Shown here one piece after another: positions 44,928 through 58,627 of a stretch of 64,000 bases of DNA. The notes below the pieces were generated by a model. It worked only from the letters and a program-made list of their open reading frames with translations, had not been told where the DNA came from and made no database searches. The translations under genes were made by a program, and so were the position numbers. Position 1 is the first letter of the stretch, and each line of letters opens with the position of its first letter. This DNA is from Trichocoleus sp. (GTDB lineage Bacteria > Cyanobacteriota > Cyanobacteriia > Elainellales > Elainellaceae), in NCBI GenBank assembly GCA_036702865.1, contig DATNQD010000054.1, forward strand, positions 62,001 to 126,000. Direction: 5' to 3'.

Positions 44928-47189
44928 TTACAGTTCGCTCTTCGCTGTGTAAGTCTTTCCAGGCAACATCTGCTCCCTATCATCAACATTAATTTGTAAA
45001 ACCTCTAGTGCAGCTTCAACAACAGTTTCCGGTGGAATGTCTAGGCACTCAAGTTGATAGGGACAAGCAAAGGCGTAACAAGGGCTGCAAACAGTGGGAC
45101 GACGCAGAAGGCGAGAAGGGCTGCAGCGAGGCTGCCATTGACATTCATATTCGGTTCCAGCGAATAGAACAACGCTGGGTGTATTGACAGCATCTGCAAT
45201 GTGCATCGTGGACGTGTTGTTTGTGAGAATTAGCTTTGCTTGAGCGATTAAAGCCACTAATTCTGGTAGTGTGGTTGCGCCAATAAAATCAATTGCCCGA
45301 TCGCCTAACGTCGTAAGGAGAGAACGAGATCGATCGCGATCTTTTTCCACGCCCGTAACCACAACTGACCATCCAGTAATTTCGCTAAGGCGACGAGCGG
45401 CAGTGGCAAAGCGATCGGAATCATAGTTTCGAGATTGACAGGTTGTCCAGGGGTTGAGCAGCAAATAGTTGGGTGAAACCGATCGCTCTATGAGTTGGCG
45501 TTCGATCGACTGTTGCGCTGCATGGGGGATCTGGAGTGAGAGGCGACGATCAATAATATGACAACCAATTGATTCAATCAAGCGTAAATTGCGATCGACC
45601 TGATGTATTTCATCAGGAGCAGGCAAAATGGCATGAGTTAGCGCCCCAATATCAGTTTCTTTGGATTCGCCTAGCCGCAATGAAATGCCTGCCAGGGCAC
45701 AAATCAGAGCAGGAGGATGAGGGCTTTGGCTAAAGCTGGTGAGAATAATTGCTGCATCAAATTGACGGCCGCGAAGCGTTTCGATCAAATTCCATTCCCG
45801 TTGAGGATCGAAATCCAACCGTCCCAAATCTTGCCAGAGCACGCGATCGGGCAGCACCTCATCCACCCAGGGCAAGAGTGGCACCACAAGAGAACCTGCC
45901 GGACTTGCCATCAGCGTAATTTTTGCTTCAGGAAAGTTTTGCCGCAAAGCACGAAGTGTTGGACTGGTCATCACTACATCCCCGATGTTATCGAGACGCA
46001 TCACCAGTAGATTTCGCACCGTTTGCCAGGAATGAGCAATTGAACTGGACGTTAAAACCTCTTGTTGATCAGCTAAGCCTGCCCCGATATTCGATCGCTC
46101 CCGCCCTGAAGAATTCAGGGGAAATTCCCTGGAAGAATTCTGTGCCTCAACAGCATGATCAAACCGTTGACTTTCAGAAGCCCCAGATTCAGAACGATTA
46201 GCAGCAAACAAAAGCCGATCGACCGCTTCCAGAACTTGCTGAGGCGAAATTTCATCCAGACAAGTATTCCAGTCAAAAGGGCAGTCTCCGCTATACCAGC
46301 AGCGCTGCTCGGTGAAGTTGTGGATCAGGCGCTCAGGACAGGGCGGAAACCCTTGCAGATTAATGTGTGGTGCAGGTTGCCCATAGCGTTCAGACCAGGA
46401 AGGACCAAAGAGCGTAATCGTTGGCGCGCTTAAAGCTGCTGCAATTCGAGCCGGACCTGTATCTGCTGCAATCACACAGTCTGCCAGTGCCAGAGCCGCC
46501 GCAAACTGACGGAGTGATCCGCGTTGCCAAACCTGTGCTGTACCGCCGATCGATTGAGCAATTGCCTCAGCTTGTGCCTGATCAGCACCAACAGGAACCA
46601 CGATCGATGCGCCATATTGTTGCTGTAACTGCCGTCCTACCGTAATAAAGTTGGCATCCGACCAGCGTTTAATGGACATCCCTGCATCAATACAGAGAAA
46701 GATGAGCGGTCGATAGGATGCACCAAACTGCGATTGAGCCGCTTGTTTTTCGGTTTGCGTCAGGTGAATCTGACCATCAGCGCAATCAACCGTTATGAGT
46801 CCTTCCGCTTGCAGCAACTTCAGGAATCGATCGCCCACGCGCTGATCAGCAGGCGGAGATTGCCATAGATTTGTCACGACTTTTTGAGCCGAACTGCGCT
46901 GAATTACTTCAGCAATGCCATCATAATTTGTATCTGAAACAATCAGATCAAACGTTTGAGTGGATAGAAGCTGATCAACTGTTGATCGGGCTGCTCCCCG
47001 TTCTGCAACAATCACTTGATGAATGAAGGGATCAGTGTTGAGCAATTCATTTCCAGGGGCAAAAGTAAGCACTGTGAAATGTGCTGAGGGATGCGATCGG
47101 GCTAAACCATGAATTGCAGGTAAGGCAATCACCAGATCACCAATACCTCCTAAAAGCTCAATAAATAGAATGCGATCGAAACTGTTCAT
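44928..47189 (-). CDS. Tandem double GT9 (heptosyltransferase-type) glycosyltransferase
   Basis: 753 residues holding two complete GT9 units. Unit 1 (about 1-335) has 'IELLGGIGDLVIALPAIHGL' and 'DCVIAADTGPARIAAALSAP'. A Ser/Asn/Glu-rich linker (about 335-390) follows. Unit 2 (about 390-740) has 'VMRLDNIGDVVMTSPTLRAL' and 'LILTNNTSTMHIADAVNTP'. Each unit ends with a Cys-rich segment; in unit 2 it is 'CSPCYAFACPYQLEC'. GT9 contains ADP-heptose:LPS heptosyltransferases (WaaC/WaaF). Two units in one chain suggest successive transfers. With HldE, GmhB and GmhA encoded in the same block, ADP-heptose is the likely donor. Confidence 0.92.
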   Translation of the reverse strand: MNSFDRILFIELLGGIGDLVIALPAIHGLARSHPSAHFTVLTFAPGNELLNTDPFIHQVIVAERGAARSTVDQLLSTQTFDLIVSDTNYDGIAEVIQRSSAQKVVTNLWQSPPADQRVGDRFLKLLQAEGLITVDCADGQIHLTQTEKQAAQSQFGASYRPLIFLCIDAGMSIKRWSDANFITVGRQLQQQYGASIVVPVGADQAQAEAIAQSIGGTAQVWQRGSLRQFAAALALADCVIAADTGPARIAAALSAPTITLFGPSWSERYGQPAPHINLQGFPPCPERLIHNFTEQRCWYSGDCPFDWNTCLDEISPQQVLEAVDRLLFAANRSESGASESQRFDHAVEAQNSSREFPLNSSGRERSNIGAGLADQQEVLTSSSIAHSWQTVRNLLVMRLDNIGDVVMTSPTLRALRQNFPEAKITLMASPAGSLVVPLLPWVDEVLPDRVLWQDLGRLDFDPQREWNLIETLRGRQFDAAIILTSFSQSPHPPALICALAGISLRLGESKETDIGALTHAILPAPDEIHQVDRNLRLIESIGCHIIDRRLSLQIPHAAQQSIERQLIERSVSPNYLLLNPWTTCQSRNYDSDRFATAARRLSEITGWSVVVTGVEKDRDRSRSLLTTLGDRAIDFIGATTLPELVALIAQAKLILTNNTSTMHIADAVNTPSVVLFAGTEYECQWQPRCSPSRLLRRPTVCSPCYAFACPYQLECLDIPPETVVEAALEVLQINVDDREQMLPGKTYTAKSEL

Positions 47190-47242: not shown

Positions 47243-48046
47243 TTAGATTGAGAGTAGTTGCGGTGCATCGTTGTGGCGATCGTGAATTGTTGTGGGCAAT
47301 TCCTGGTGATACACGCCAGAAGGCATAACACCACAGCCCCCAAAGGTTTCCATGACTCGCAGTTGGGCTAAAACATCCTCACCGCAATGGTTTGGAGGTA
47401 GATCGCGCCAAAATTCATAGCCACCAACACTATTCAGCTTTGCCCGGTCATACAGCACACAGCCCCCCACCCAGGCAACGCGATAGGTGCGCGGACGATC
47501 GGGCGTGATGTGGAGCTGCTGTTGTACGTGGTAGAGATTGGCAGCATTATGAAGCTTGTAGCGTTCCCAGGCGGGCGTCCCCGATCGCACAACTTCTGGC
47601 TGAACTGCTCCATCCCAAAACTCAATAATCTGCTGATGTGGACGGACATCATCCTTGAAGCTCAAACCAATCACCGCAGAACCAACAAATCCACAGCCTT
47701 CAGCCTGAATCACATCCATCAAACATTGAACAACCCAAGGCTCTAAAATTAGGTCGTCATCCAGATATAGAACGTAAGGAGCCGTTGCCTGATCCAGCAA
47801 AAACTGCCGATGTTCTGCAACTCCCCGTCGCGGCAAGTGCCGATGGGTTGCGATCGATTGTCCATGTGCTTCGAGAACATGCAGCGCCGCCCGGACTTCT
47901 CCTGCTTCTAGAGAATTGCTGGATTCAGTCTGGTCAGAAACAATGACGCTGAAATCTCGATAGGTTTGGGCGCATAAACTCGTTAGCGTTACCGCCAGTG
48001 CCGCAGGACGATTACAGGTTGGAATGAGGATATCTAGAGTCGTCAT
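47243..48046 (-). CDS. Glycosyltransferase family 2
   Basis: A 267-residue GT-A glycosyltransferase. It begins 'LDILIPTCNRPAALAVTLTS' and has the metal-binding DXD region 'VLYLDDDLILEPW'. 'VAWVGGCVLYDRAKLNSVGG' and 'CGEDVLAQLR' (catalytic ED) are in the acceptor part. There are no membrane helices, so it is cytoplasmic. It lies 2 bp downstream of the GT9 gene at 48049 and 53 bp upstream of the double GT9, consistent with one transcript. Confidence 0.92.
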   Translation of the reverse strand: MTTLDILIPTCNRPAALAVTLTSLCAQTYRDFSVIVSDQTESSNSLEAGEVRAALHVLEAHGQSIATHRHLPRRGVAEHRQFLLDQATAPYVLYLDDDLILEPWVVQCLMDVIQAEGCGFVGSAVIGLSFKDDVRPHQQIIEFWDGAVQPEVVRSGTPAWERYKLHNAANLYHVQQQLHITPDRPRTYRVAWVGGCVLYDRAKLNSVGGYEFWRDLPPNHCGEDVLAQLRVMETFGGCGVMPSGVYHQELPTTIHDRHNDAPQLLSI

Positions 48047-48048
48047 AT

Positions 48049-49158
48049 CTAAACCGTAAGCAAAGGAACAGGCAAATTGATCGGCAAATTGGAAGATGTT
48101 TCATGGAATAAATCGAGGACAGCCTCGACAACGGTTTCAGGCTCAACTAAACGCAAACAGTGATGATGCCCCTCTGGGCAAACGCTTTTATAGCAAATAC
48201 GACAAGGAACATCGTGAAACAGAACTCGATTTGGCACTCCCCAGGGGGTATGCTGCAAATTTGTCAGTGCATATAAGTCAACGATCGCTGTTCCCACTGC
48301 CGCTGCCAAATGCACAGGTCCCGTATTATTGGAGAGCAGCAAAGGTGTGATCGACAGCAAAGCCGCTAATTCTGCAAGAGTCAGACGATCGACAAGCGAG
48401 AAGGAGGAAACACCCATCTCAGATTGAATTTGCTGCACTAATGCTTGTTCTGCCTGAGTTCCTGTAAAGACAATTTGCATCCCGGCATCCTGCACTAACT
48501 TGCGCGCAACGATCGCATATTGTTCAGGTGGATAGCGACGCGAGGGAGCCGTTGCACCAGGATGAAGGACGAGCCAGGGCTGATCCAGGATCAAGCCATC
48601 TGAAACGAGCAATGACTGGACGCGATCGATTGTTCCTGCCGGAATTTGAATCGCCATGCGCGTCTCTTGAATGTCAAAACCAACACTAGCAACCAAATCG
48701 AGCTGACGCTGAACTTCATGCCGAGTGAACTGTTCGGGTTCTGGATCTTTGACCCAATCTGTCAATAGCTGGTATACATTTTCGTGACAGTGGGCTAACC
48801 GCAGCGGAATATCTGCCATGTAGCATAAAAACGCTGATGGTAATGGATTTTGGCTATAAACCGTAAACACCACGGCTGCATCAAATTTTTCCTGCCTCAA
48901 CCGCTCGATCATGGCGTATTCCGGTGAGCTACTGCTGCGGGGATCTGTTGCTTTGAGCCAGGGCGCATCATAGACAATTACCTGATCAATTTCAGGAATC
49001 AGGGGGGCAACTGTCGCGCCAGACGCAGAGGTGAGCAAGGTAATCCGACAGTCAGGGTGAGTTTTGAGGGCACGAATGGCAGGCGTTGTCATGAGAACGT
49101 CTCCGATCGAATCCAAGCGTACGCAAAGAATATTTTTAGCAGTATTCCAGGAAGACAT
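48049..49158 (-). CDS. GT9 family (heptosyltransferase-type) glycosyltransferase
   Basis: 369 residues from the ATG at 49158; upstream in-frame codons were rejected because 'MSSWNTAKNILCVRLDSIGD' gives the usual GT9 start. Motifs are 'VRLDSIGDVLMTTPAIRAL', 'FDAAVVFTVYSQNPLPSAF', 'LVLHPGATAPSRRYPPEQYA' and 'LLLSNNTGPVHLAAAVGTA'. A C-terminal Cys/His segment 'CRICYKSVCPEGHHHC' is present. Upstream lies a 12-bp tandem repeat between it and hldE. Confidence 0.93.
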   Translation of the reverse strand: MSSWNTAKNILCVRLDSIGDVLMTTPAIRALKTHPDCRITLLTSASGATVAPLIPEIDQVIVYDAPWLKATDPRSSSSPEYAMIERLRQEKFDAAVVFTVYSQNPLPSAFLCYMADIPLRLAHCHENVYQLLTDWVKDPEPEQFTRHEVQRQLDLVASVGFDIQETRMAIQIPAGTIDRVQSLLVSDGLILDQPWLVLHPGATAPSRRYPPEQYAIVARKLVQDAGMQIVFTGTQAEQALVQQIQSEMGVSSFSLVDRLTLAELAALLSITPLLLSNNTGPVHLAAAVGTAIVDLYALTNLQHTPWGVPNRVLFHDVPCRICYKSVCPEGHHHCLRLVEPETVVEAVLDLFHETSSNLPINLPVPLLTV

Positions 49159-49179
49159 AAGCAGTGAAGTTTTGTGAAA

Positions 49180-49210
49180 GTTTAACAGATGGTTTAACAG
49201 ATGGTTTAAC
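49180..49210. repeat. 12-bp tandem repeat, 2.6 copies
   Basis: GTTTAACAGATG at 49180-49191 and 49192-49203, then a partial GTTTAAC to 49210, in the 93-bp gap between hldE and the GT9 gene. Confidence 0.9.
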
Positions 49211-49251
49211 TGGAGTTTCAACTAAAAGTTAGGTTATAAATTTTGAATTTA

Positions 49252-50748
49252 TCAAGGTAATTCAGCAATGTGAGATGGAGGCAGTTTTGAGAAGGAGCGA
49301 ATTTTTGCAATCGTGTTTGTGGTAGAACGATCGTTGACAAAAGGAAGAATCTTAACAACTCCGCCCAAAGATTCAACTAAGTCAGCTTCAGGTAAAGTAT
49401 TTCGGGTATAGTCTCCTCCTTTAACAAACACATCAGGACAAACAATTTGAATCAGGTGATGAGGCGTTGATTCAGAAAAAGGAACGACATGATCGACACA
49501 ACCCAACGCAGCGAGCACTGTTAATCGATCGGTTAAAGCATTGACGGGTCGTCCAATTCCTTTTAGTTGACGCACGCTTTCATCACTGTTGACCCCAACA
49601 ATTAAAATATCACCCAGTGCTTTTGCTTGTTCCAAATAGGTCACATGACCCGCATGGAGAATATCAAAACAGCCATTTGTGAATACAACTTTTCGTCCCG
49701 ATGCACGATAAAGCTGGATACAGGCAGCAAGCAAGGCACGATCGGTCATTTGTTTTTGCAGACAGCATTCGCTCAGAATTGATTGACGCAATTGTTCGAT
49801 CGAACAAATACTCGTTCCGGGCTGTTGAACGACAATCGCAGTTGCAGTACTGGCAAGTGAAAGTGCATCTGAAACCGGAATTTGGGCAGCTAAACTCAAG
49901 GTTAAAGCACTGACAAACGTATCGCCCGCACCGGATGTTTGATGACTCGGCACAGGTTTTGCTGGTTGATGGATGGGTGGCTGTTGCGGCTGAAATAGAA
50001 GAACGCCTTCTCGATCGAGCGTTGCTGCAACCATGGTTGCCCCTGAAAGTTCTAGCAACCGATCGCCATAAGGCAAAATCTGCTCGACTCGCTGTTCGGT
50101 TTGGGCAGCTAACCCAAGAAGTTGAATCGTTTCCTGGTAGTTGGGCTTCACGATCGTTGGTTTCACTGCCTGGTAAGCTGTAAGCTGTTTTGCATCCACG
50201 ATGACAGTACGCGGATGTTGAGACTGTAAGTCAGCGATCGTTTGAATGATCCGAGGGGTGAGAATGCCATAGCCATAGTCGGACACAATCACTGCATCAC
50301 AAGCCAGAAAATCTTGAGTTAATTGATTGATGAATTGCGCTTCTAAAGCTGCATCGATCGGCTCTGTGCTGCCCTGATCAAACCGCAACAATAGCTGATT
50401 TTGAGCGACAATTCGCTGCTTGCTGAGCGTGGTTCGATGAGGAGTTGTCATCAGATTAGCATTCACGCTTCGCTGCTGAAGTGCCTGCCGCAGTCGATCG
50501 CCTTCCCCATCCTGCCCAATCACAGAAAGTAGCTTTACCTTTGCTCCTAAAGCTGCAACATTCGCGGCACTGTTGGCGGCACCTCCCGGAAAATCCTGCC
50601 GTTGCTCAATGGCGACCACAGGAACCGGAGCCTCCTGACAAAGCCGATGGCTTGCCCCATGCAAATAGCAGTCCAGCATCACATCACCAATCACTAAAAC
50701 TGTGAGTGATAACCAGCGATCGATCCAGTTCAACCAATCAATATTCAT
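49252..50748 (-). CDS. hldE: Bifunctional heptose 7-phosphate kinase / heptose 1-phosphate adenylyltransferase
   Basis: A 498-residue enzyme doing two steps of ADP-heptose synthesis. The N-terminal PfkB kinase (about 1-325) phosphorylates D-glycero-D-manno-heptose 7-phosphate at C1. Motifs are 'VLVIGDVMLDCYLHG', 'FPGGAANSAANVAALGA' and 'HQTSGAGDTFVSAL' (catalytic Asp in GAGD). The C-terminal cytidylyltransferase-type domain (about 345-490) adds AMP to the 1-phosphate and has 'VVFTNGCFDILHAGHVTYLE' with the HxGH motif. Length and order match E. coli HldE. The ATG overlaps the stop of gmhB as ATGA. Confidence 0.96.
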   Translation of the reverse strand: MNIDWLNWIDRWLSLTVLVIGDVMLDCYLHGASHRLCQEAPVPVVAIEQRQDFPGGAANSAANVAALGAKVKLLSVIGQDGEGDRLRQALQQRSVNANLMTTPHRTTLSKQRIVAQNQLLLRFDQGSTEPIDAALEAQFINQLTQDFLACDAVIVSDYGYGILTPRIIQTIADLQSQHPRTVIVDAKQLTAYQAVKPTIVKPNYQETIQLLGLAAQTEQRVEQILPYGDRLLELSGATMVAATLDREGVLLFQPQQPPIHQPAKPVPSHQTSGAGDTFVSALTLSLAAQIPVSDALSLASTATAIVVQQPGTSICSIEQLRQSILSECCLQKQMTDRALLAACIQLYRASGRKVVFTNGCFDILHAGHVTYLEQAKALGDILIVGVNSDESVRQLKGIGRPVNALTDRLTVLAALGCVDHVVPFSESTPHHLIQIVCPDVFVKGGDYTRNTLPEADLVESLGGVVKILPFVNDRSTTNTIAKIRSFSKLPPSHIAELP

Positions 50749-51404
50749 GAGACTACCGGATAGATTGAATGCGATGGTTTGAGGAATTCCTGATCCTGTA
50801 CAAGATGAATCACTTGAGAATTTGAGTTCCCGTTCTCAACAGTTTGATCGATCGCAACAATCGCGCTTGCCGCTTCAGATAAATTTTTCACCACATGATG
50901 CGGTAGCCGCGAGTATGAAAGCTGCCACTCGGTTTCGTTGCCGTTATCAATTAAAACAGTACGACAGCCTGCCACTCGTCCTGCTTCTACATCATGCAAA
51001 ATATCTCCAATAAACCAGGAGCGGGACAGATCGATCTCATGTTCAGCCGCCGCTTGCAGCAGTAGCCCCGGTTGCGGTTTACGGCAAGCACAGGCGATCG
51101 AATAAGGGGAGACAGTGCCATCTGGATGGTGAGGGCAATAATAGAATCCGGCAAGCGGAATCTTAAAAATTGCCAGCTGTTCGCGCAAGAACCGTTCCAC
51201 AGGAACAAGTGCCATTTCTGAGAAATAGCCCCGCGCCACACCCGATTGATTCGTGATCACAAATAATTTGTATCCTGCCTGATGGAGCAAACGGAGCGCA
51301 CCGATCGCCCCTTCAGACCACAAAATTTTTGCCGGATCAACATTGTAAGGCACGTCTTCAACCAGCGTTCCGTCTTTGTCTAGAAAAACTGCTCTATTCA
51401 GCAT
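50745..51404 (-). CDS. gmhB: D-glycero-beta-D-manno-heptose 1,7-bisphosphate 7-phosphatase
   Basis: A 219-residue HAD phosphatase that removes the 7-phosphate from heptose bisphosphate. HAD motif I is 'AVFLDKDGTLVED' (D9, D11). The GmhB zinc loop is present: C90-x-H92 in 'YYCPHHPDG' and C105-x-C107 in 'IACACRKPQPG'. The start is the ATG at 51404. The last 30 residues extend past the core domain. It is directly upstream of hldE, with stop and start overlapping. The similar histidinol-phosphate phosphatase is excluded by context. Confidence 0.95.
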   Translation of the reverse strand: MLNRAVFLDKDGTLVEDVPYNVDPAKILWSEGAIGALRLLHQAGYKLFVITNQSGVARGYFSEMALVPVERFLREQLAIFKIPLAGFYYCPHHPDGTVSPYSIACACRKPQPGLLLQAAAEHEIDLSRSWFIGDILHDVEAGRVAGCRTVLIDNGNETEWQLSYSRLPHHVVKNLSEAASAIVAIDQTVENGNSNSQVIHLVQDQEFLKPSHSIYPVVS

Positions 51405-51610: not shown

Positions 51611-52336
51611 TTAAGGCCAGGATGTTTCTCGCATTGGAATTACCGTAATTTCTGGAATAACGGTTTCATCAGGTTGCATGAGGACGTAGCGAACCGTCTC
51701 TGCCACATTGCGCGGATCTTGAAGTAGACCCGGATCCAGATCGGGGAAGCGATCGAGCAAAAAGGGTGTTCTCATTCCACCTGCAACAACTGCGGTTACT
51801 TTAATGCCGTTAGGGCGTCCTTCCACATGCATCGCATGGCTTAAACCCATCAAACCCCACTTGCTGGCATGATATCCCGACGCATTCGCCCAGGCGCGTT
51901 TCGCAGCAGTTGAGGCAATGTTGACAATATGCCCACCGCCCTGCTGTTTCATCAAGGGAAAGATCGTTTTTGCCAGAATAAACGGAGCGCGTAAATTGAC
52001 GTTAATGATTCTGTCCCAATCTGCGACTGAAAGTTCTTCGATCGCAACTGTCAAATCAGTTCCAGCGTTATTCACCAAAACATCAATTTTTCCATGCTGA
52101 TCGATGATTTTTTGAATTGCCGCTTCAATCTGCTGTTCGTTTGTAATGTCTAGTGGCAAATTGAATGCTTCCAAACCTCGATCGCGCAATCCCTTTGCCA
52201 CTTGCTCTGCCAGATCCGTCTGAATATCAGCCGCAATGACCGTTGCTCCAGCTTCCGCCAAGGTTTGACAAATTGCTGCACCCAAGCCACGTCCACCACC
52301 TGTGATCAAGGCAATTTTTCCGTTGAGTTTTTCCAC
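51611..52336 (-). CDS. Short-chain dehydrogenase/reductase
   Basis: A 241-residue classical SDR with nucleotide motif 'ALITGGGRGLGAAIC', 'VLVNNAGTDLTV', and catalytic Ser-Tyr-Lys in 'HIVNIAST' and 'SGYHASKWG'. The start codon is GTG at 52336. Its size and classical Y-x3-K motif separate it from HldD, the extended SDR that epimerises ADP-heptose. Its substrate is unknown; it could reduce a sugar or acyl intermediate, or be a FabG-like enzyme carried in the block. Confidence 0.88.
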   Translation of the reverse strand: MEKLNGKIALITGGGRGLGAAICQTLAEAGATVIAADIQTDLAEQVAKGLRDRGLEAFNLPLDITNEQQIEAAIQKIIDQHGKIDVLVNNAGTDLTVAIEELSVADWDRIINVNLRAPFILAKTIFPLMKQQGGGHIVNIASTAAKRAWANASGYHASKWGLMGLSHAMHVEGRPNGIKVTAVVAGGMRTPFLLDRFPDLDPGLLQDPRNVAETVRYVLMQPDETVIPEITVIPMRETSWP

Positions 52337-52395: not shown

Positions 52396-54351
52396 CTATT
52401 CCGATCGCGCCAGTGAAAATGTGGCGTTCTGCGCTGACCCTTCCAGTTTTGGGGTCAAAACAGCCAACTCATAGCGTTGATTTTCCCACTGTCCGAGTTG
52501 AACCGTTTCATTGGCACTGGATGCCAATAGCTGCTCCTCAACCAGTTCGCACAGCAGATGAATCACCATAATTTGCACCTCCTGAATTCGCTGCGTCTCG
52601 ATCGCCGGAACCACAATGGCAATATCCGCCTGCTGTTTTAGCTCACCGCCGTCACCGCCAAGCAGAGCGATTGTGGTCAGATTCATCCGCCGCGCCGATT
52701 CAAACGCTGCAATCACATTTTTCGATCGGCCGCTGGTGCTGATGCCGATCAGGAGATCGTGAGGTTGAGCAAACGTTTCAACCTGCCGCGCAAAGATATC
52801 TTCGTAACCTACATCATTTGCCCAAGCCGTGAGAAAGGTGCTATCTGCCGTCAGTGCCATTGCTGGTAATCCGGCTCGATGCGGACAGCAAAAACGACCG
52901 ACTAGCTCTGCGACAAAATGTTGAGCATCTGCTGCACTGCCACCATTGCCACAAATCAACACCTTGCCACCCCGCAAAAAACAAGCTCCCATCGCCTGAG
53001 ACGTTGCCTGAATTGCAGGACGCAAAAGCCGCTGCGATCGCTGAACTGCCTTGATCACTGACTCAAAACCGCGATCGAGAATTGCCACCTGATTGGCTTC
53101 CCGCCCCACGACTGCACCAACACCGCTCAGCACTTCCTCATACAGTGCCGCAACTGCACTGGTTACTTTCTGCCAGGTGAAATGCTCTTGACAGCGCCGG
53201 ATTGCCTGCCTACCAAACAGATTTCGCAACTGCGGATTTTTCAGCAGATGTTTTAATCGATCGGCTAATGCTTCCGTGTCATTCGGCGGTACAAGATAGC
53301 CCGTTTCGCCCTCCTTTACCGTAAACTTAACGCCACCCACATTCGAGCCAATGACAGGCGTGCCACAAGCCATTGCTTCGATCGGCGTAATGCCAAACGG
53401 CTCATACCAGGGCGTTGTCACAAAGACATCCGCAGCACTGTAGTAATATTTCAAAACTTCTCGTCCGCGTCGTCCAGCAAACGTGATTCGCGTTGCAACA
53501 CCGAGTTCCTGAGCAATGGCATTCAACCGTCCAATTTCAGGGGTGAGCTGTGGATCAGGGCTATCTGCTTCACCTCCAACAATGAGCAGCCGAGCGGCGA
53601 TTGCATGATCTTTTTGGAGATGGGCAAAGGCACGAATCACATTGTCCACCCCTTTCCGAGGAACCATGCGTCCGAGTTGGAGGATCAGGGGTTCATCCGG
53701 GGGTAATCCGAGCGTCAGACGGGCGCGGGTCTTGTCGATCGTCCAGAACTCGGTCATGTCGAAGCCACAGGGAATCACGCTAATGCGGCTCGGCTCAGCC
53801 TGATAAAGATTCACCAGATCTTCGCGATCTTGCGGACATTCAGCAATGATGTGATCGGCTTCCTGCACGACCCGATCTTCAATCGCAAATCGATCGTCGG
53901 GAAACTGATCGGCTGTGCCCTGATAAAGGCGGCGTACCCGCCCAAGCGCATGAAACGTGACGACGAACGGAATGCCTAAAACCCGCTTGATATCTGCTGC
54001 AACCAGCGCCGACATCCAAAAGTTGGCATGAATCAGATCATAAGTGTCATGACAGCGACACCAGTCCAACATAAACGCGGTGAACTCACCCATGTAAGGC
54101 AAAAGATTTTCCTTGGGAATGGAAATCGGTAAGCCTGCAGGAACATGAATGACTCGAACTCCATGCTGCCATTCCACAACTTCTGGCAAATGATCAGCAT
54201 CACGGCGCGTAAACACATCAACACGATAACCGATCGCCGCTAAATGCTTTGCCAGCTGTCCGACATAGACATTTTGTCCACCACTATCGACCCCTCCAAA
54301 GATACCCAGTGGCGTTGCATGTTCACTAATCAGGGCAATACGTTTTGTCAT
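52396..54351 (-). CDS. Fusion of GT4 glycosyltransferase (SPS-like) with sedoheptulose-7-phosphate isomerase GmhA
   Basis: 651 residues in two parts. The GT4 part (about 1-425) resembles sucrose-phosphate-synthase-like enzymes: 'GGVDSGGQNVYVGQLAKHLA', 'PFVVTFHALGRVRR', 'LILQLGRMVPRKGVDNVI' and 'VTTPWYEPFGITPIEAMACG'. The SIS part (about 440-615) is GmhA-like: 'VLICGNGGSAADAQHF' (about 464-479), Glu482 in 'VAELVGRF' and His598 in 'QIMVIHLLCEL', which correspond to the catalytic Glu65 and His180 of E. coli GmhA. GmhA converts sedoheptulose 7-phosphate to D-glycero-D-manno-heptose 7-phosphate. The fusion links the first pathway step to a transferase; there is no separate gmhA in the window. Confidence 0.93.
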   Translation of the reverse strand: MTKRIALISEHATPLGIFGGVDSGGQNVYVGQLAKHLAAIGYRVDVFTRRDADHLPEVVEWQHGVRVIHVPAGLPISIPKENLLPYMGEFTAFMLDWCRCHDTYDLIHANFWMSALVAADIKRVLGIPFVVTFHALGRVRRLYQGTADQFPDDRFAIEDRVVQEADHIIAECPQDREDLVNLYQAEPSRISVIPCGFDMTEFWTIDKTRARLTLGLPPDEPLILQLGRMVPRKGVDNVIRAFAHLQKDHAIAARLLIVGGEADSPDPQLTPEIGRLNAIAQELGVATRITFAGRRGREVLKYYYSAADVFVTTPWYEPFGITPIEAMACGTPVIGSNVGGVKFTVKEGETGYLVPPNDTEALADRLKHLLKNPQLRNLFGRQAIRRCQEHFTWQKVTSAVAALYEEVLSGVGAVVGREANQVAILDRGFESVIKAVQRSQRLLRPAIQATSQAMGACFLRGGKVLICGNGGSAADAQHFVAELVGRFCCPHRAGLPAMALTADSTFLTAWANDVGYEDIFARQVETFAQPHDLLIGISTSGRSKNVIAAFESARRMNLTTIALLGGDGGELKQQADIAIVVPAIETQRIQEVQIMVIHLLCELVEEQLLASSANETVQLGQWENQRYELAVLTPKLEGSAQNATFSLARSE

Positions 54352-54426: not shown

Positions 54427-55392
54427 CTAATGATGCACCATTGACGGCTTGAGACTCATTGCCTGCTCAAAAGCCTCATTCCAGTCCTGAATGAATCGCT
54501 GAATACTGAAGCGCGATCGGGCTTGCTCTTTTGCACCAACTCCCAGTTGACGGGCATGAACGGGATCAGCAATAAGCTGCTGCATTCGATCGATTAAAAT
54601 GTCAACGTTGGTATCAATATAGCCAGATACACCATTTTGAATAACAGTGGCTAATTCAGTGGTGGCAAGTCCGACGATCGGTAAGCCCAGCATCATTGCT
54701 TCGCATAAGGCTAACCCAAGACTGGTATAGCGTACCGGATGAAAGAAAAAGCGATAGTTCGCTTCAAAGGCAGGCAGCTGAGTATGGGGGATTTCGCCCA
54801 ACCCGCCGAGGGATTCAGCATCCATCCCGACGAGATCTAAAGGAACCGTTTGCCGAACAGACTGAAAAATATCTGCTCCTAACCTTCGCCCTCTCGATCG
54901 CAGCCCATTCGTGACAACAATACCGCGTGGAATTTGACCGCTGTACTGCACCTGCTCAGGCACAATGACACCATGCTCAACAACGCGAGTTGGCGTTTTG
55001 CCGTTATCCCACATGAGCTGATTAAACGCTGTGACATGAACGAGCAATACATCAGATTCGTTTACAACATGCTGCGTATCCGTAGGCTGCTCTCTGGGCG
55101 GATCATGTTCCAGGTAAAGGCGCGGCAACTGCCGCTGTGCTTCGGATAGAATATCATATTGATCTTCTAGATAATTTCGCCGGGACTGGAACAGAACACA
55201 GTCAAACTGCTGATGCTGGACTTCCTCCGCTGGAATATCATGAACATTCTCTCCCCAGGCAAACCCACCCAGCTTTCCCCCATAGCCTTCTGGTTTACCA
55301 GGCTTTACAGGTAAATAAAACTCATGGGGAACCTGAGAAAGATAGTAGAGGTAGTTACCGTGAATGTGCCAGGTCAGAATTTTCAGTCGCAT
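54427..55392 (-). CDS. Glycosyltransferase family 4-like
   Basis: 321 residues from the ATG at 55392 ('MRLKILTWHIHGNYLYYLSQ'); upstream in-frame codons lie in the neighbouring gene and add an unlikely hydrophobic leader. A GT-B donor domain is visible: 'RGIVVTNGLRSRGRRLGADI', 'FFFHPVRYTSLGLALCEAMM' with E-x7-type pattern, and 'NGVSGYIDTNVDILID'. The N-terminal half has 'LYLEHDPPREQPTDTQH', seen in some GT4 proteins from polysaccharide loci. The start overlaps the upstream half-GT9 gene by 38 bp. Confidence 0.88.
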   Translation of the reverse strand: MRLKILTWHIHGNYLYYLSQVPHEFYLPVKPGKPEGYGGKLGGFAWGENVHDIPAEEVQHQQFDCVLFQSRRNYLEDQYDILSEAQRQLPRLYLEHDPPREQPTDTQHVVNESDVLLVHVTAFNQLMWDNGKTPTRVVEHGVIVPEQVQYSGQIPRGIVVTNGLRSRGRRLGADIFQSVRQTVPLDLVGMDAESLGGLGEIPHTQLPAFEANYRFFFHPVRYTSLGLALCEAMMLGLPIVGLATTELATVIQNGVSGYIDTNVDILIDRMQQLIADPVHARQLGVGAKEQARSRFSIQRFIQDWNEAFEQAMSLKPSMVHH

Positions 55393-55912
55393 AATTGAGT
55401 GATTCGGAAGAATGAGTAGGTTGATTCGCCGCTGTCGTAATTGATTCTGAGACTGAAAGACCGAGTGAACGTAAAAGATGCAGATGATAGTCGATCGCTT
55501 GAACGGTATCACATGGAGGCTGAACCTGATGAGATAAAACTCCACCTCCAAATTCGCTCGATTGTCCACATCGAATTGGAATGCCTGCTAAGTAACAGCA
55601 ATACGCCATACTGTAGGGAGATTGACCAGGAGCAGTAAAAATAATAGCGGCATCAAAGGATGTATTTTGGATGAATTGGATCAACTTATAAGCATCAAAA
55701 GATACAGAATTCTGGAACGGAAGAGAGAAAATTTTAATCTCTTCAAATTGAACTGCGGCAGAAGCATCCAAAGACAAATTGAGAGAGTGAATCTGCGCTT
55801 GTGGCAGTGATTGCCTGAGACTCTGCAAGGCTGGTAACACCTTCACCGCATCCGAATTTTGGAGACTGACCAGCACCAAAAGCCGTCCGATTTGCTGCCA
55901 TTCAAGATACAT
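55355..55912 (-). CDS. Half-length, degenerate GT9-like protein
   Basis: 185 residues from the ATG at 55912. It matches only the N-terminal (acceptor) half of the GT9 proteins in this block: 'VKVLPALQSLRQSLPQAQIH', 'FDAAIIFTAPGQSPYSMAYC', and 'YLAGIPIRCGQSSEFG'. The RxDxxGD signature is lost ('VLVSLQNSDAVKVL') and the whole donor half is missing. No frame downstream restores the missing half, because the GT4 gene starts inside this gene's end. It overlaps the upstream GT9 gene by 11 bp. It is either a decaying paralogue or a non-catalytic partner. Confidence 0.78.
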   Translation of the reverse strand: MYLEWQQIGRLLVLVSLQNSDAVKVLPALQSLRQSLPQAQIHSLNLSLDASAAVQFEEIKIFSLPFQNSVSFDAYKLIQFIQNTSFDAAIIFTAPGQSPYSMAYCCYLAGIPIRCGQSSEFGGGVLSHQVQPPCDTVQAIDYHLHLLRSLGLSVSESITTAANQPTHSSESLNYATENSDLAHSR

Positions 55913-56939
55913 AAACAACCTCCTGACGCAACAGATCGATCGCTTCCTGCAAGACTTGGGTTGGGGTTGCAGATGCAGCAGAGTGACCGACGACAATGCG
56001 ATGATACTGCCGATTCAGCGGCGACCAGCGATGCGGATCAGAATCTGAAAAAATAACAACACTGCGTGTTTGCAAGGCTGCGGCGAGATGCGAAACGCCC
56101 GTATCGTTACAGATGAGCAACTGAGTTTTTTTCAGCAAAGCTGCCATTGTGCCCAATGTCGTTTTTCCTGCCAGATCGATCGCCGGATACTGCATCTTTT
56201 GCGCGATTGCTTGAGTCAAATCTTGTTCACTGGCAGTTCCCGTTAACACCACCTGATAGCCTCTTGCCGCTAATGTGTTCGCAACGATCGCGAAATGCTC
56301 ATTTAACCACCGTCGTTCTGGAATGCTAGCCCCAGGATGAATGCAGATGTAATTAGACTTGAGCGAATGAGTTTGCCCTAAATTTTCAAATTCGTTCCAG
56401 TCAGATTGCCAGATTGGAAACTCTAGCTCATCGCCCTGTAGGGGAATTCCTAGAAAATCCATCAGCCGCAAGTGTCGCCAAATCTCATGCTCTTGCTCCG
56501 GGTAAGCCAGAAATCGATCGGGGTTGGGGCAAGGCTGACCTGCCGGAAAAAAGCCTGCTGTTTGTTTAGCCCCAAGCAGTTGCGCAAAGCCATTCATTGC
56601 TGAGCCATTGCCATGCATTTGTAACACCAGATCAAATGCGGTTTGCTGTGCCTGAGCCAAAAACGACACCACTTTCTGAGGAGAAAGCGTCACCTCAGGA
56701 ATACCAGGATAGCCAGGAAACTCTAACCATTCGTCTAAATAATGTTGAAACCGCTGCACAAACGTTTTTGCCCAGGGTAAGCCAATGAGCGTAATGTGAG
56801 CACTGGGTAGAGCCATCCGAACTGCTCGCAGTGCCGGAACAAAGCAGAGCAAATCGCCCAAACCAGGCAGCGATCGAATAATTGCAACGCGCTGGGGCGG
56901 TTCACTTAGAAGAGAGTTTGCACTGAAACCTGTCTCCAT
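55902..56939 (-). CDS. GT9 family (heptosyltransferase-type) glycosyltransferase
   Basis: A 345-residue GT9 enzyme from the ATG at 56939. Motifs are 'VAIIRSLPGLGDLLCFVPAL' (the GLGD form), 'FDLVLQMHGNGSAMNGFAQL', 'ICIHPGASIPERRWLNEHFA' and 'LLICNDTGVSHLAAALQTRS'. Unlike the other GT9 proteins here it lacks the C-terminal Cys cluster. It is the first gene of the minus-strand glycan block. The 482 bp before it should carry the main promoter. Confidence 0.92.
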   Translation of the reverse strand: METGFSANSLLSEPPQRVAIIRSLPGLGDLLCFVPALRAVRMALPSAHITLIGLPWAKTFVQRFQHYLDEWLEFPGYPGIPEVTLSPQKVVSFLAQAQQTAFDLVLQMHGNGSAMNGFAQLLGAKQTAGFFPAGQPCPNPDRFLAYPEQEHEIWRHLRLMDFLGIPLQGDELEFPIWQSDWNEFENLGQTHSLKSNYICIHPGASIPERRWLNEHFAIVANTLAARGYQVVLTGTASEQDLTQAIAQKMQYPAIDLAGKTTLGTMAALLKKTQLLICNDTGVSHLAAALQTRSVVIFSDSDPHRWSPLNRQYHRIVVGHSAASATPTQVLQEAIDLLRQEVVYVS

Positions 56940-57421: not shown

Positions 57422-58627
57422 CTAGTTTAGTTGTTGACACTGTAACGATCGCAAAAGCAAACAGAGCCTCATTTGCACCGCATTATCGAATTTTCGGGGA
57501 TCTAGCCCTGTCAGAGAAGCAATTTTGTCCAGCCGATAGCTGAGCGTGTTGCGATGAATCGAAAGCTGTTTTGCGGTTGCTGAAGGACAACAATTCTCTG
57601 TAAAAAAGACATCCAGCGTACTTAACAACTCCCGCTCATGATCAAGGGGACTCAACAGATATTTTGCCAGGTCAATTTTTGTATTCTCATCTGCTACCCC
57701 CACAAAAGCAGCAATCCCCAATTCTCCTAAACAATGAACTCGATTATTACCCTGAAACCGCCGACCCAGCGACAAGGCAGCCCTCGCATCCTCATACGAT
57801 CGAGCTAATCCTCGAATTCCAGGGTGATAGCGACCAATGCCCAAATTTAAGGATGTGCCTGTGTCATTCCGCAAGCGTAGCAAAAGCGCATCTGCTGCCC
57901 GTTTCAGCGCTGCCAGATTTGCCCAAGATGAACTCAGCCCTTCGGCAACATCATTACAGTCTGCCCATCGATCGAGGTTTTTGCTGTTGCTTGCTTTTAA
58001 GACAGCCACTAGCCCATGTCCTAAATAAGCGCAGATTGTGTCATTGGGTAGATGAAAAAAACTAACTAAGCTATTGATGATGATCTGCGCTCGTCGTTGC
58101 TCTGTTTCCTCAATATCTTGTTTTGCATTATTGTATTGAGCAATACATTGAGTAATATAATTCGCTGCATCAATTAAAATTACGGCTCTTGGCTGATTCA
58201 AATCAATCCCTAATCGTTTAGCCCGAGTCCAAATTACCGCTTCGTCTTCAAACCGATCGTGCAACAAATCATCAATCAGTTCGTTTTTTAATTCATGCTG
58301 GCTGGGTAGATGGTTCTGAGTTGACTGATTCACTACAAGTTCAACTAATGCCTGGGCTAAACGAGGAGAAATTGTCTCTCGATTGACTGGTCTTCCAACA
58401 ATAATTTCTCCACTTTCGGTTTCGTGACGCAGTGGAATGCGTAAAAAGTTTGCAATTGTAGACTCACCGATTTCCCATGTAAATGAGCAACCGATCTGGT
58501 CTGGTTCGCTGCTGGTAATCACAACTCCCCGCTCATTAGTGACAAAAACAGGTGCATAAAGGAGTTCAGCGATGCGATCGGTGACTACACTAGCAAGTTG
58601 AACAAATCGAGTAGAGGTATTGACCAT
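57422..58627 (-). CDS. CdaR/PucR family transcriptional regulator
   Basis: A 401-residue regulator. The N-terminal sugar-diacid-recognition-like domain (about 1-130) has 'VFVTNERGVVITSSEPDQIG' and 'IPLRHETESGEIIVG'. A GGDEF-like middle region (about 135-310) contains 'LNLGIGRYHPGIRGLARSYE'. The C-terminal PucR helix-turn-helix (about 335-395) has 'CCPSATAKQLSIHRNTLSYR'. CdaR controls glycerate/glucarate use in enterobacteria; the inducer here is unknown. It is unlinked to obvious sugar-acid genes. Confidence 0.92.
   Translation of the reverse strand: MVNTSTRFVQLASVVTDRIAELLYAPVFVTNERGVVITSSEPDQIGCSFTWEIGESTIANFLRIPLRHETESGEIIVGRPVNRETISPRLAQALVELVVNQSTQNHLPSQHELKNELIDDLLHDRFEDEAVIWTRAKRLGIDLNQPRAVILIDAANYITQCIAQYNNAKQDIEETEQRRAQIIINSLVSFFHLPNDTICAYLGHGLVAVLKASNSKNLDRWADCNDVAEGLSSSWANLAALKRAADALLLRLRNDTGTSLNLGIGRYHPGIRGLARSYEDARAALSLGRRFQGNNRVHCLGELGIAAFVGVADENTKIDLAKYLLSPLDHERELLSTLDVFFTENCCPSATAKQLSIHRNTLSYRLDKIASLTGLDPRKFDNAVQMRLCLLLRSLQCQQLN

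What the first reader, a model, noticed from the sequence alone, without database searches (positions are those of the whole stretch)
52396..54351. Fusion of an SPS-like GT4 glycosyltransferase with GmhA isomerase
A single 651-residue chain joins a complete GT4 to a complete SIS-type GmhA with the catalytic Glu482 and His598 in place. Putting the first committed step of heptose synthesis on a transferase suggests channelling, or flux control of the block.
Basis: partly seen in the sequence, partly recalled or inferred. Interest (0 to 1): 0.6.

Follow-up and report, generated by a model that had tools for sequence, protein, structure and literature searches.

The report
Fused sugar transferase and heptose-making isomerase
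One cyanobacterial gene joins a sugar-attaching enzyme to the enzyme that starts heptose synthesis; the same joined enzyme, not described in the papers searched, sits in matching sugar-building gene clusters of about seven bacterial phyla and is usually the cell's only copy of that isomerase.

Summary
Window 52396-54351 (-) is one frame of 651 codons: a complete GT4 (residues 4-408), a variable linker, a complete GmhA-type isomerase (426-611) and a disordered tail. E482 and H598 are in place, as are the other two GmhA zinc ligands (H478, Q590). It is no frame error: the fusion is one frame in about 45 of 390 sampled cyanobacterial genomes and in six other phyla, inside a conserved cluster (GT, GT4-GmhA, SDR, GmhB, HldE, GT9s). 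All 26 fused GmhA halves tested form one clade apart from stand-alone GmhAs, while the GT4 halves do not, which suggests one old fusion and repeated loss of the isomerase. 22 of 26 genomes with the fusion have no other GmhA; 22 of 24 with the unfused GT4 have one elsewhere. The GT4 is kin to sucrose-phosphate synthase and MshA but separate; it keeps their phosphate-binding Lys/Arg, so a phosphorylated acceptor is likely. The fusion most likely gives the cluster its own heptose-7-phosphate supply. Channelling is untested, and the repeated losses show that it is not essential. Product and activities are unknown. I found no paper describing this fusion.

The parts
52396..54351 (-). GT4-GmhA fusion gene, 651 aa
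   Evidence: single ORF; domains; conserved fused in relatives
53128..54351 (-). GT4 (GT-B) half, residues 1-408
   Evidence: Pfam/NCBIfam; Foldseek 6kih TMt 0.93, 3c4q 0.91
53077..53127 (-). linker, residues 409-425, variable and low-confidence
   Evidence: mean majority frequency 0.36 against 0.75 and 0.71 in the halves; pLDDT below 50 at 412-418
52519..53076 (-). GmhA (SIS) half, residues 426-611
   Evidence: NCBIfam PRK13936, TIGR00441; PDB GmhA matches
52396..52518 (-). C-terminal tail, residues 612-651 and stop, disordered and poorly conserved
52906..52908 (-). E482 (N. gonorrhoeae E65), zinc ligand and catalytic
52558..52560 (-). H598 (N. gonorrhoeae H183), zinc ligand and catalytic
52918..52920 (-). 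H478 (N. gonorrhoeae H61), zinc ligand
52582..52584 (-). Q590 (N. gonorrhoeae Q175, given by the neighbouring subunit), zinc ligand
54112..54114 (-). K80, equivalent of TeSPS R105 that holds the acceptor phosphate
   Evidence: invariant in 69 family members; PMC7264703
53890..53892 (-). R154, equivalent of TeSPS R178 that holds the acceptor phosphate
   Evidence: 68 of 69 family members; PMC7264703
51611..52336 (-). SDR oxidoreductase, conserved cluster member
   Evidence: Pfam adh_short; same place in many clusters
50745..51404 (-). GmhB-like HAD phosphatase
   Evidence: its end overlaps the HldE start by 4 bases
49252..50748 (-). HldE, heptose-7-phosphate kinase and heptose-1-phosphate adenylyltransferase
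   Evidence: 420 bits to PRK11316; 202.5 to rfaE_dom_II, over its cut-off
48049..49221 (-). GT9 heptosyltransferase-like
   Evidence: TIGR02195 145.8 bits, over cut-off
47243..48046 (-). GT2 glycosyltransferase
44928..47189 (-). protein with two GT9 heptosyltransferase-like domains
54427..55569 (-). GT with GT4-like C-terminal half ('WHIHG' near its likely start), conserved upstream partner
55902..56939 (-). GT9 heptosyltransferase-like

Best explanation
A real two-enzyme protein. [quoted passage not shown] The neighbouring HldE and GmhB convert this to ADP-D,D-heptose, which the cluster's GT9 enzymes use to build a heptose-containing glycan. The N-terminal GT4 half adds another sugar for the same glycan, probably from a UDP-sugar onto a small phosphorylated acceptor, as its relatives SPS and MshA do. 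The fusion was made once, long ago, and gives clusters that carry their own HldE a dedicated isomerase; where the cell has a GmhA for other purposes the half was lost. Shown: fusion, conservation, residues, synteny, clade structure, complementary distribution. Inferred: both activities, oligomeric state, order of events, product. Not shown: channelling.
For: Domains and catalytic residues; GmhB and HldE adjacent. Cluster order conserved over phyla. GmhA in the cluster goes with HldE in the cluster: 22 both, 3 GmhA only, 4 HldE only, 48 neither (Fisher p 3e-12, not corrected for kinship). The fusion is the only GmhA in 22 of 26 genomes and in the window's own; 22 of 24 genomes with unfused GT4 have a GmhA elsewhere. 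Fused GmhA halves form one clade (SH-aLRT 97), whereas one clade of the fused GT4 halves is rejected (p-AU 1.6e-37). GT4 phosphate-site K80 and R154 are invariant or nearly so, with the SPS structure as guide. Both halves are under strong purifying selection.
Against: No activity has been measured for either half. Both halves score below the curated NCBIfam cut-offs. The GT4 acceptor and donor are guessed from residues. I recognised no exporter or polymerase in the stretch annotated, so the kind of glycan is open. The trees are quick ones and unrooted, and transfer of whole clusters between phyla could give part of the pattern. One fused copy (L065) has lost two zinc ligands. In the Actinobacteria examined GmhA is a separate gene next to the GT4, so fusion is not needed for the pathway.
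Confidence: 0.75

Rival explanations
1. Substrate channelling: the GT4 site takes the GmhA product (or shares its substrate) directly, passing it between the two sites on one chain.
For: SPS acts on a ketose phosphate (F6P), and the GmhA substrate is the seven-carbon ketose phosphate; the phosphate-binding K80 and R154 are kept; the linker is short, mostly 12-29 residues.
Against: HldE, not the GT4, is the known user of heptose 7-phosphate. The GmhA half is missing from many GT4 orthologues in the same cluster, so the GT4 works without it. The linker is variable and looks flexible.
Confidence: 0.15
2. The fusion is a co-regulation and assembly device: equal amounts, and a GmhA tetramer that gathers four GT4 domains near the other cluster enzymes, without channelling. 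This can be true together with the best explanation.
For: GmhA is a tetramer with one zinc ligand from the neighbouring subunit (PMC5387315), and that residue (Q590) is present; M. tuberculosis GmhA binds its pathway partners (PMC7705670).
Against: No oligomer was modelled or measured here.
Confidence: 0.4
3. The SIS half is no longer an isomerase and serves as a sugar-phosphate sensor or scaffold (as DiaA is a non-enzymatic relative of GmhA).
For: SIS domains are often regulatory (general knowledge); the GmhA score is below the curated cut-off.
Against: All zinc ligands and the phosphate-binding STSGxS motif are kept in the window and in nearly all fused copies; the DiaA model scores lower than the GmhA models; most of these genomes have no other GmhA although HldE and GmhB are there.
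Confidence: 0.07
4. A frame error or misassembly joined two separate genes.
For: A few relatives show a broken frame (L135, L136, L137), though within the GT4 half.
Against: The same single frame occurs in dozens of independent genomes.
Confidence: 0.005

Closest known systems
Sucrose-phosphate synthase TeSPS (Tll1590, PDB 6kih)
   Same: GT-B fold (TMt 0.93); catalytic H158, E331, E339 and phosphate-binding R105, R178 correspond to H134, E317, E325, K80, R154
   Different: Only 36% identical; separate clade from cyanobacterial SPS-like proteins; Y and S of the acceptor pocket replaced by F111 and A135; fused to GmhA
MshA, inositol-phosphate GlcNAc transferase (PDB 3c48/3c4q, TIGR03449)
   Same: Best NCBIfam model for the GT4 half (305 bits); fold TMt 0.91; K and R of the phosphate site
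   Different: Below the curated cut-off of 462 bits; pocket Y and T replaced by F and A; the gene context is heptose, not mycothiol
GmhA, sedoheptulose 7-phosphate isomerase (PDB 1tk9, 2xbl, 5i01)
   Same: Whole domain, zinc ligands and substrate motif
   Different: Carried as the C-terminal half of a GT4; own clade, apart from stand-alone GmhAs
GmhA-GmhB fusion in distant members of the same phylum (L023, L032)
   Same: GmhA fused to an enzyme of the heptose field on one chain
   Different: Different partner (C-terminal HAD phosphatase) and different GmhA branch

Membership tests
GmhA (sedoheptulose 7-phosphate isomerase) | SIS domain of GmhA type over its whole length | tested here: met
   TIGR00441 7-154/154 and PRK13936 8-195/197 matched; scores 191.5 and 204.5, below the whole-protein cut-offs 209 and 276
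GmhA (sedoheptulose 7-phosphate isomerase) | Zinc ligands H61, E65, Q175, H183 (N. gonorrhoeae numbering) | tested here: met
   H478, E482, Q590, H598
GmhA (sedoheptulose 7-phosphate isomerase) | Substrate residues N53 and S121, T122, S123, S126 (M. tuberculosis numbering) | tested here: met
   N469, S538, T539, S540, S543 present (PMC7705670); correspondence by motif
GmhA (sedoheptulose 7-phosphate isomerase) | Tetramer | not tested
   only a single chain was modelled
GmhA (sedoheptulose 7-phosphate isomerase) | Isomerase activity | not testable with these tools
   needs an assay
GT4 family (retaining GT-B) | Two GT-B domains with the E-x7-E motif and donor-site R and K | tested here: met
   E317, E325, R228, R232, K233 invariant in 69 members; Pfam; fold
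Sucrose-phosphate synthase | Score over the SPS equivalog cut-off (TIGR02472) | tested here: not met
   143.8 bits against 576
Sucrose-phosphate synthase | Groups with cyanobacterial SPS-like proteins | tested here: not met
   separated by a fully supported branch
MshA | Score over the TIGR03449 cut-off | tested here: not met
   305 bits against 462
ADP-heptose pathway (GmhA, HldE, GmhB) | All three enzymes present | tested here: met
   fusion, 49252-50748 and 50745-51404
ADP-heptose pathway, L,D form | HldD epimerase | tested here: not met
   no match over cut-off in the genome; suggests D,D-heptose

The most novel reading that the evidence does not exclude
The GT4 half glycosylates a heptose or heptulose phosphate: a seven-carbon counterpart of sucrose-phosphate synthase, fed on the same chain by GmhA, starting a heptose glycan of bacteria whose LPS core has no heptose.
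Probability: 0.12. Interest if true: 0.8.

Novelty: new variant of a known kind. Interest (0 to 1): 0.47.

Why it matters
Cyanobacterial LPS mostly lacks heptose and KDO (PMC4515613), and this genome has no KDO-8-phosphate synthase over cut-off, yet it carries a full ADP-heptose route and several heptosyltransferase-like genes. The conserved cluster, present in many phyla, points to a widespread heptose glycan that is not the usual LPS core. The fusion marks the cluster, ties an unassigned GT4 subfamily to it, and offers one protein in which two predicted activities can be tested.

Tried and rejected
Frame error: rejected by conservation. SPS or MshA orthology: rejected by cut-offs and tree. 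A single clade of fused GT4s: rejected by the AU test, so fusion does not mark one GT4 lineage. Loss of the isomerase site in the window: rejected, ligands intact. Classical LPS-core role: unlikely, no KdsA and no HldD over cut-off. Literature: seven searches on heptose, GmhA, GT and fusion terms gave no description of this fusion, but most subscription papers are not held. The Rubrivivax polysaccharide cluster with gmhA and an mshA-like gene (PMC3684757) has them as separate genes in a GDP-heptose setting. A search for the MshA phosphate-site paper found nothing, so the MshA site residues rest on my own knowledge. The PHROGs scan gave no specific family. The second structure job, the PADLOC library and a dimer or tetramer model were not used.

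Full report
Observation. The frame 52396-54351 on the minus strand runs without a stop for 651 codons. Its first part is a complete GT4 enzyme and its second a complete SIS domain of GmhA type. Aligned to solved GmhAs they are the catalytic pair; the zinc site of N. gonorrhoeae GmhA is H61, E65, H183 and, from the next subunit, Q175 (PMC5387315), which correspond to H478, E482, H598 and Q590.

Not an artefact. Among 60 related genomes the fusion is found at 63-86% identity, in a continuous frame in most of the same-family genomes that have it. A profile of 32 fused proteins matches 52 of 390 sampled genomes of the class at E 1e-120 or better; about 45 of these are one long frame over both halves, a few are broken or partial, and two match the GT4 part only. 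Both halves have dN/dS near 0.05, the linker 0.25 and the tail 0.45, though dS is saturated. AlphaFold2 gives two confident domains, a weak joint at 412-418 and a disordered end; the GT4 part matches 6kih (SPS) and 3c4q (MshA).

Surroundings. Next to the fusion lie an SDR, a GmhB-like phosphatase, HldE, GT9 heptosyltransferase-like proteins (one with two such domains), GT2 and GT4 enzymes, and upstream a GT that I call WHIHG after a motif near its start. Much the same set and order recurs in Chloroflexota, Acidobacteriota, Planctomycetota, Verrucomicrobiota, Myxococcota, Bacteroidota, Betaproteobacteria and a Patescibacterium; some of these are MAGs. The fused form was seen in Cyanobacteriota, Chloroflexota, Acidobacteriota, Myxococcota, Bacteroidota, Pseudomonadota and Patescibacteria. 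In the actinobacterial loci GmhA is a separate gene next to the GT4, which again links the two enzymes. Many clusters also carry a carbamoyltransferase, which I did not find in the annotated part of the window's cluster.

Fused or not. Among loci with enough downstream sequence, GmhA in the cluster and HldE in the cluster go together: 22 both, 3 only GmhA, 4 only HldE, 48 neither. Of 24 genomes with an unfused GT4 in the cluster, 22 have a GmhA elsewhere; of 26 with the fusion, 22 have no other GmhA, as in the window's own genome. These counts are not corrected for kinship. All 26 fused GmhA halves group together (SH-aLRT 97) apart from stand-alone ones, and the split inside that clade follows the main split of the GT4 tree, whereas fused GT4s are scattered and one clade of them is rejected. 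The simplest account is one fusion before that split and several later losses of the GmhA half. The root is not inferred, and transfer between phyla is likely part of the story.

GT4 half. TeSPS holds the acceptor phosphate with R105 and R178 and needs H158 and E331 (PMC7264703). In this family these are K80, R154, H134 and E317, invariant in 69 sequences but for one R154. The unrelated GT4s of the same genome that I aligned do not keep the set. Two pocket residues differ from both SPS and MshA (F111 for Y, A135 for S or T) and are themselves almost invariant. So I expect a small phosphorylated acceptor other than F6P or inositol phosphate. This is inference.

Role. Cyanobacterial LPS mostly lacks heptose and KDO, with Spirulina reported as an exception (PMC4515613). 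The genome has no KDO-8-phosphate synthase and no HldD over cut-off. The heptose is therefore probably the D,D form and meant for a glycan other than a classical LPS core. I recognised no exporter or polymerase in the stretch annotated and cannot say whether the product is an exopolysaccharide, a glycolipid or a soluble glycan.

Verdict. Known parts in an old, uncommon and informative arrangement.

Noticed in passing
44928-47189 (-): A 753-aa protein carrying two GT9 heptosyltransferase-like domains in tandem, part of the same cluster.
   Followed up: partly
57422-58627 (-): A PucR/CdaR-type regulator (HTH_30 and GGDEF_2) beside the cluster, also beside it in L139 and L142; a candidate regulator.
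   Followed up: partly
L065 2495-4321: Fused copy of a Bryobacteraceae MAG with the GmhA zinc ligands H and E changed to R and D: a natural inactive candidate.
   Followed up: no
L139 3017-4098: In genome G055 the GT4 stops after residue 107 and runs straight into the HldE kinase part, as if the rest of GT4, GmhA, SDR and GmhB had been deleted, or misassembled.
   Followed up: no
L023 from about 1489, L032 from about 1432: A different fusion, GmhA-GmhB on one chain, in distant members of the same phylum.
   Followed up: partly
51611-52336 (-): The cluster's SDR ends in ETSWP, and two actinobacterial counterparts end in SWP too; its substrate is unknown.
   Followed up: no
L061: A Herpetosiphonaceae cluster with HldE but no GmhA; the genome has two neighbouring stand-alone GmhA-like genes elsewhere.
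   Followed up: no
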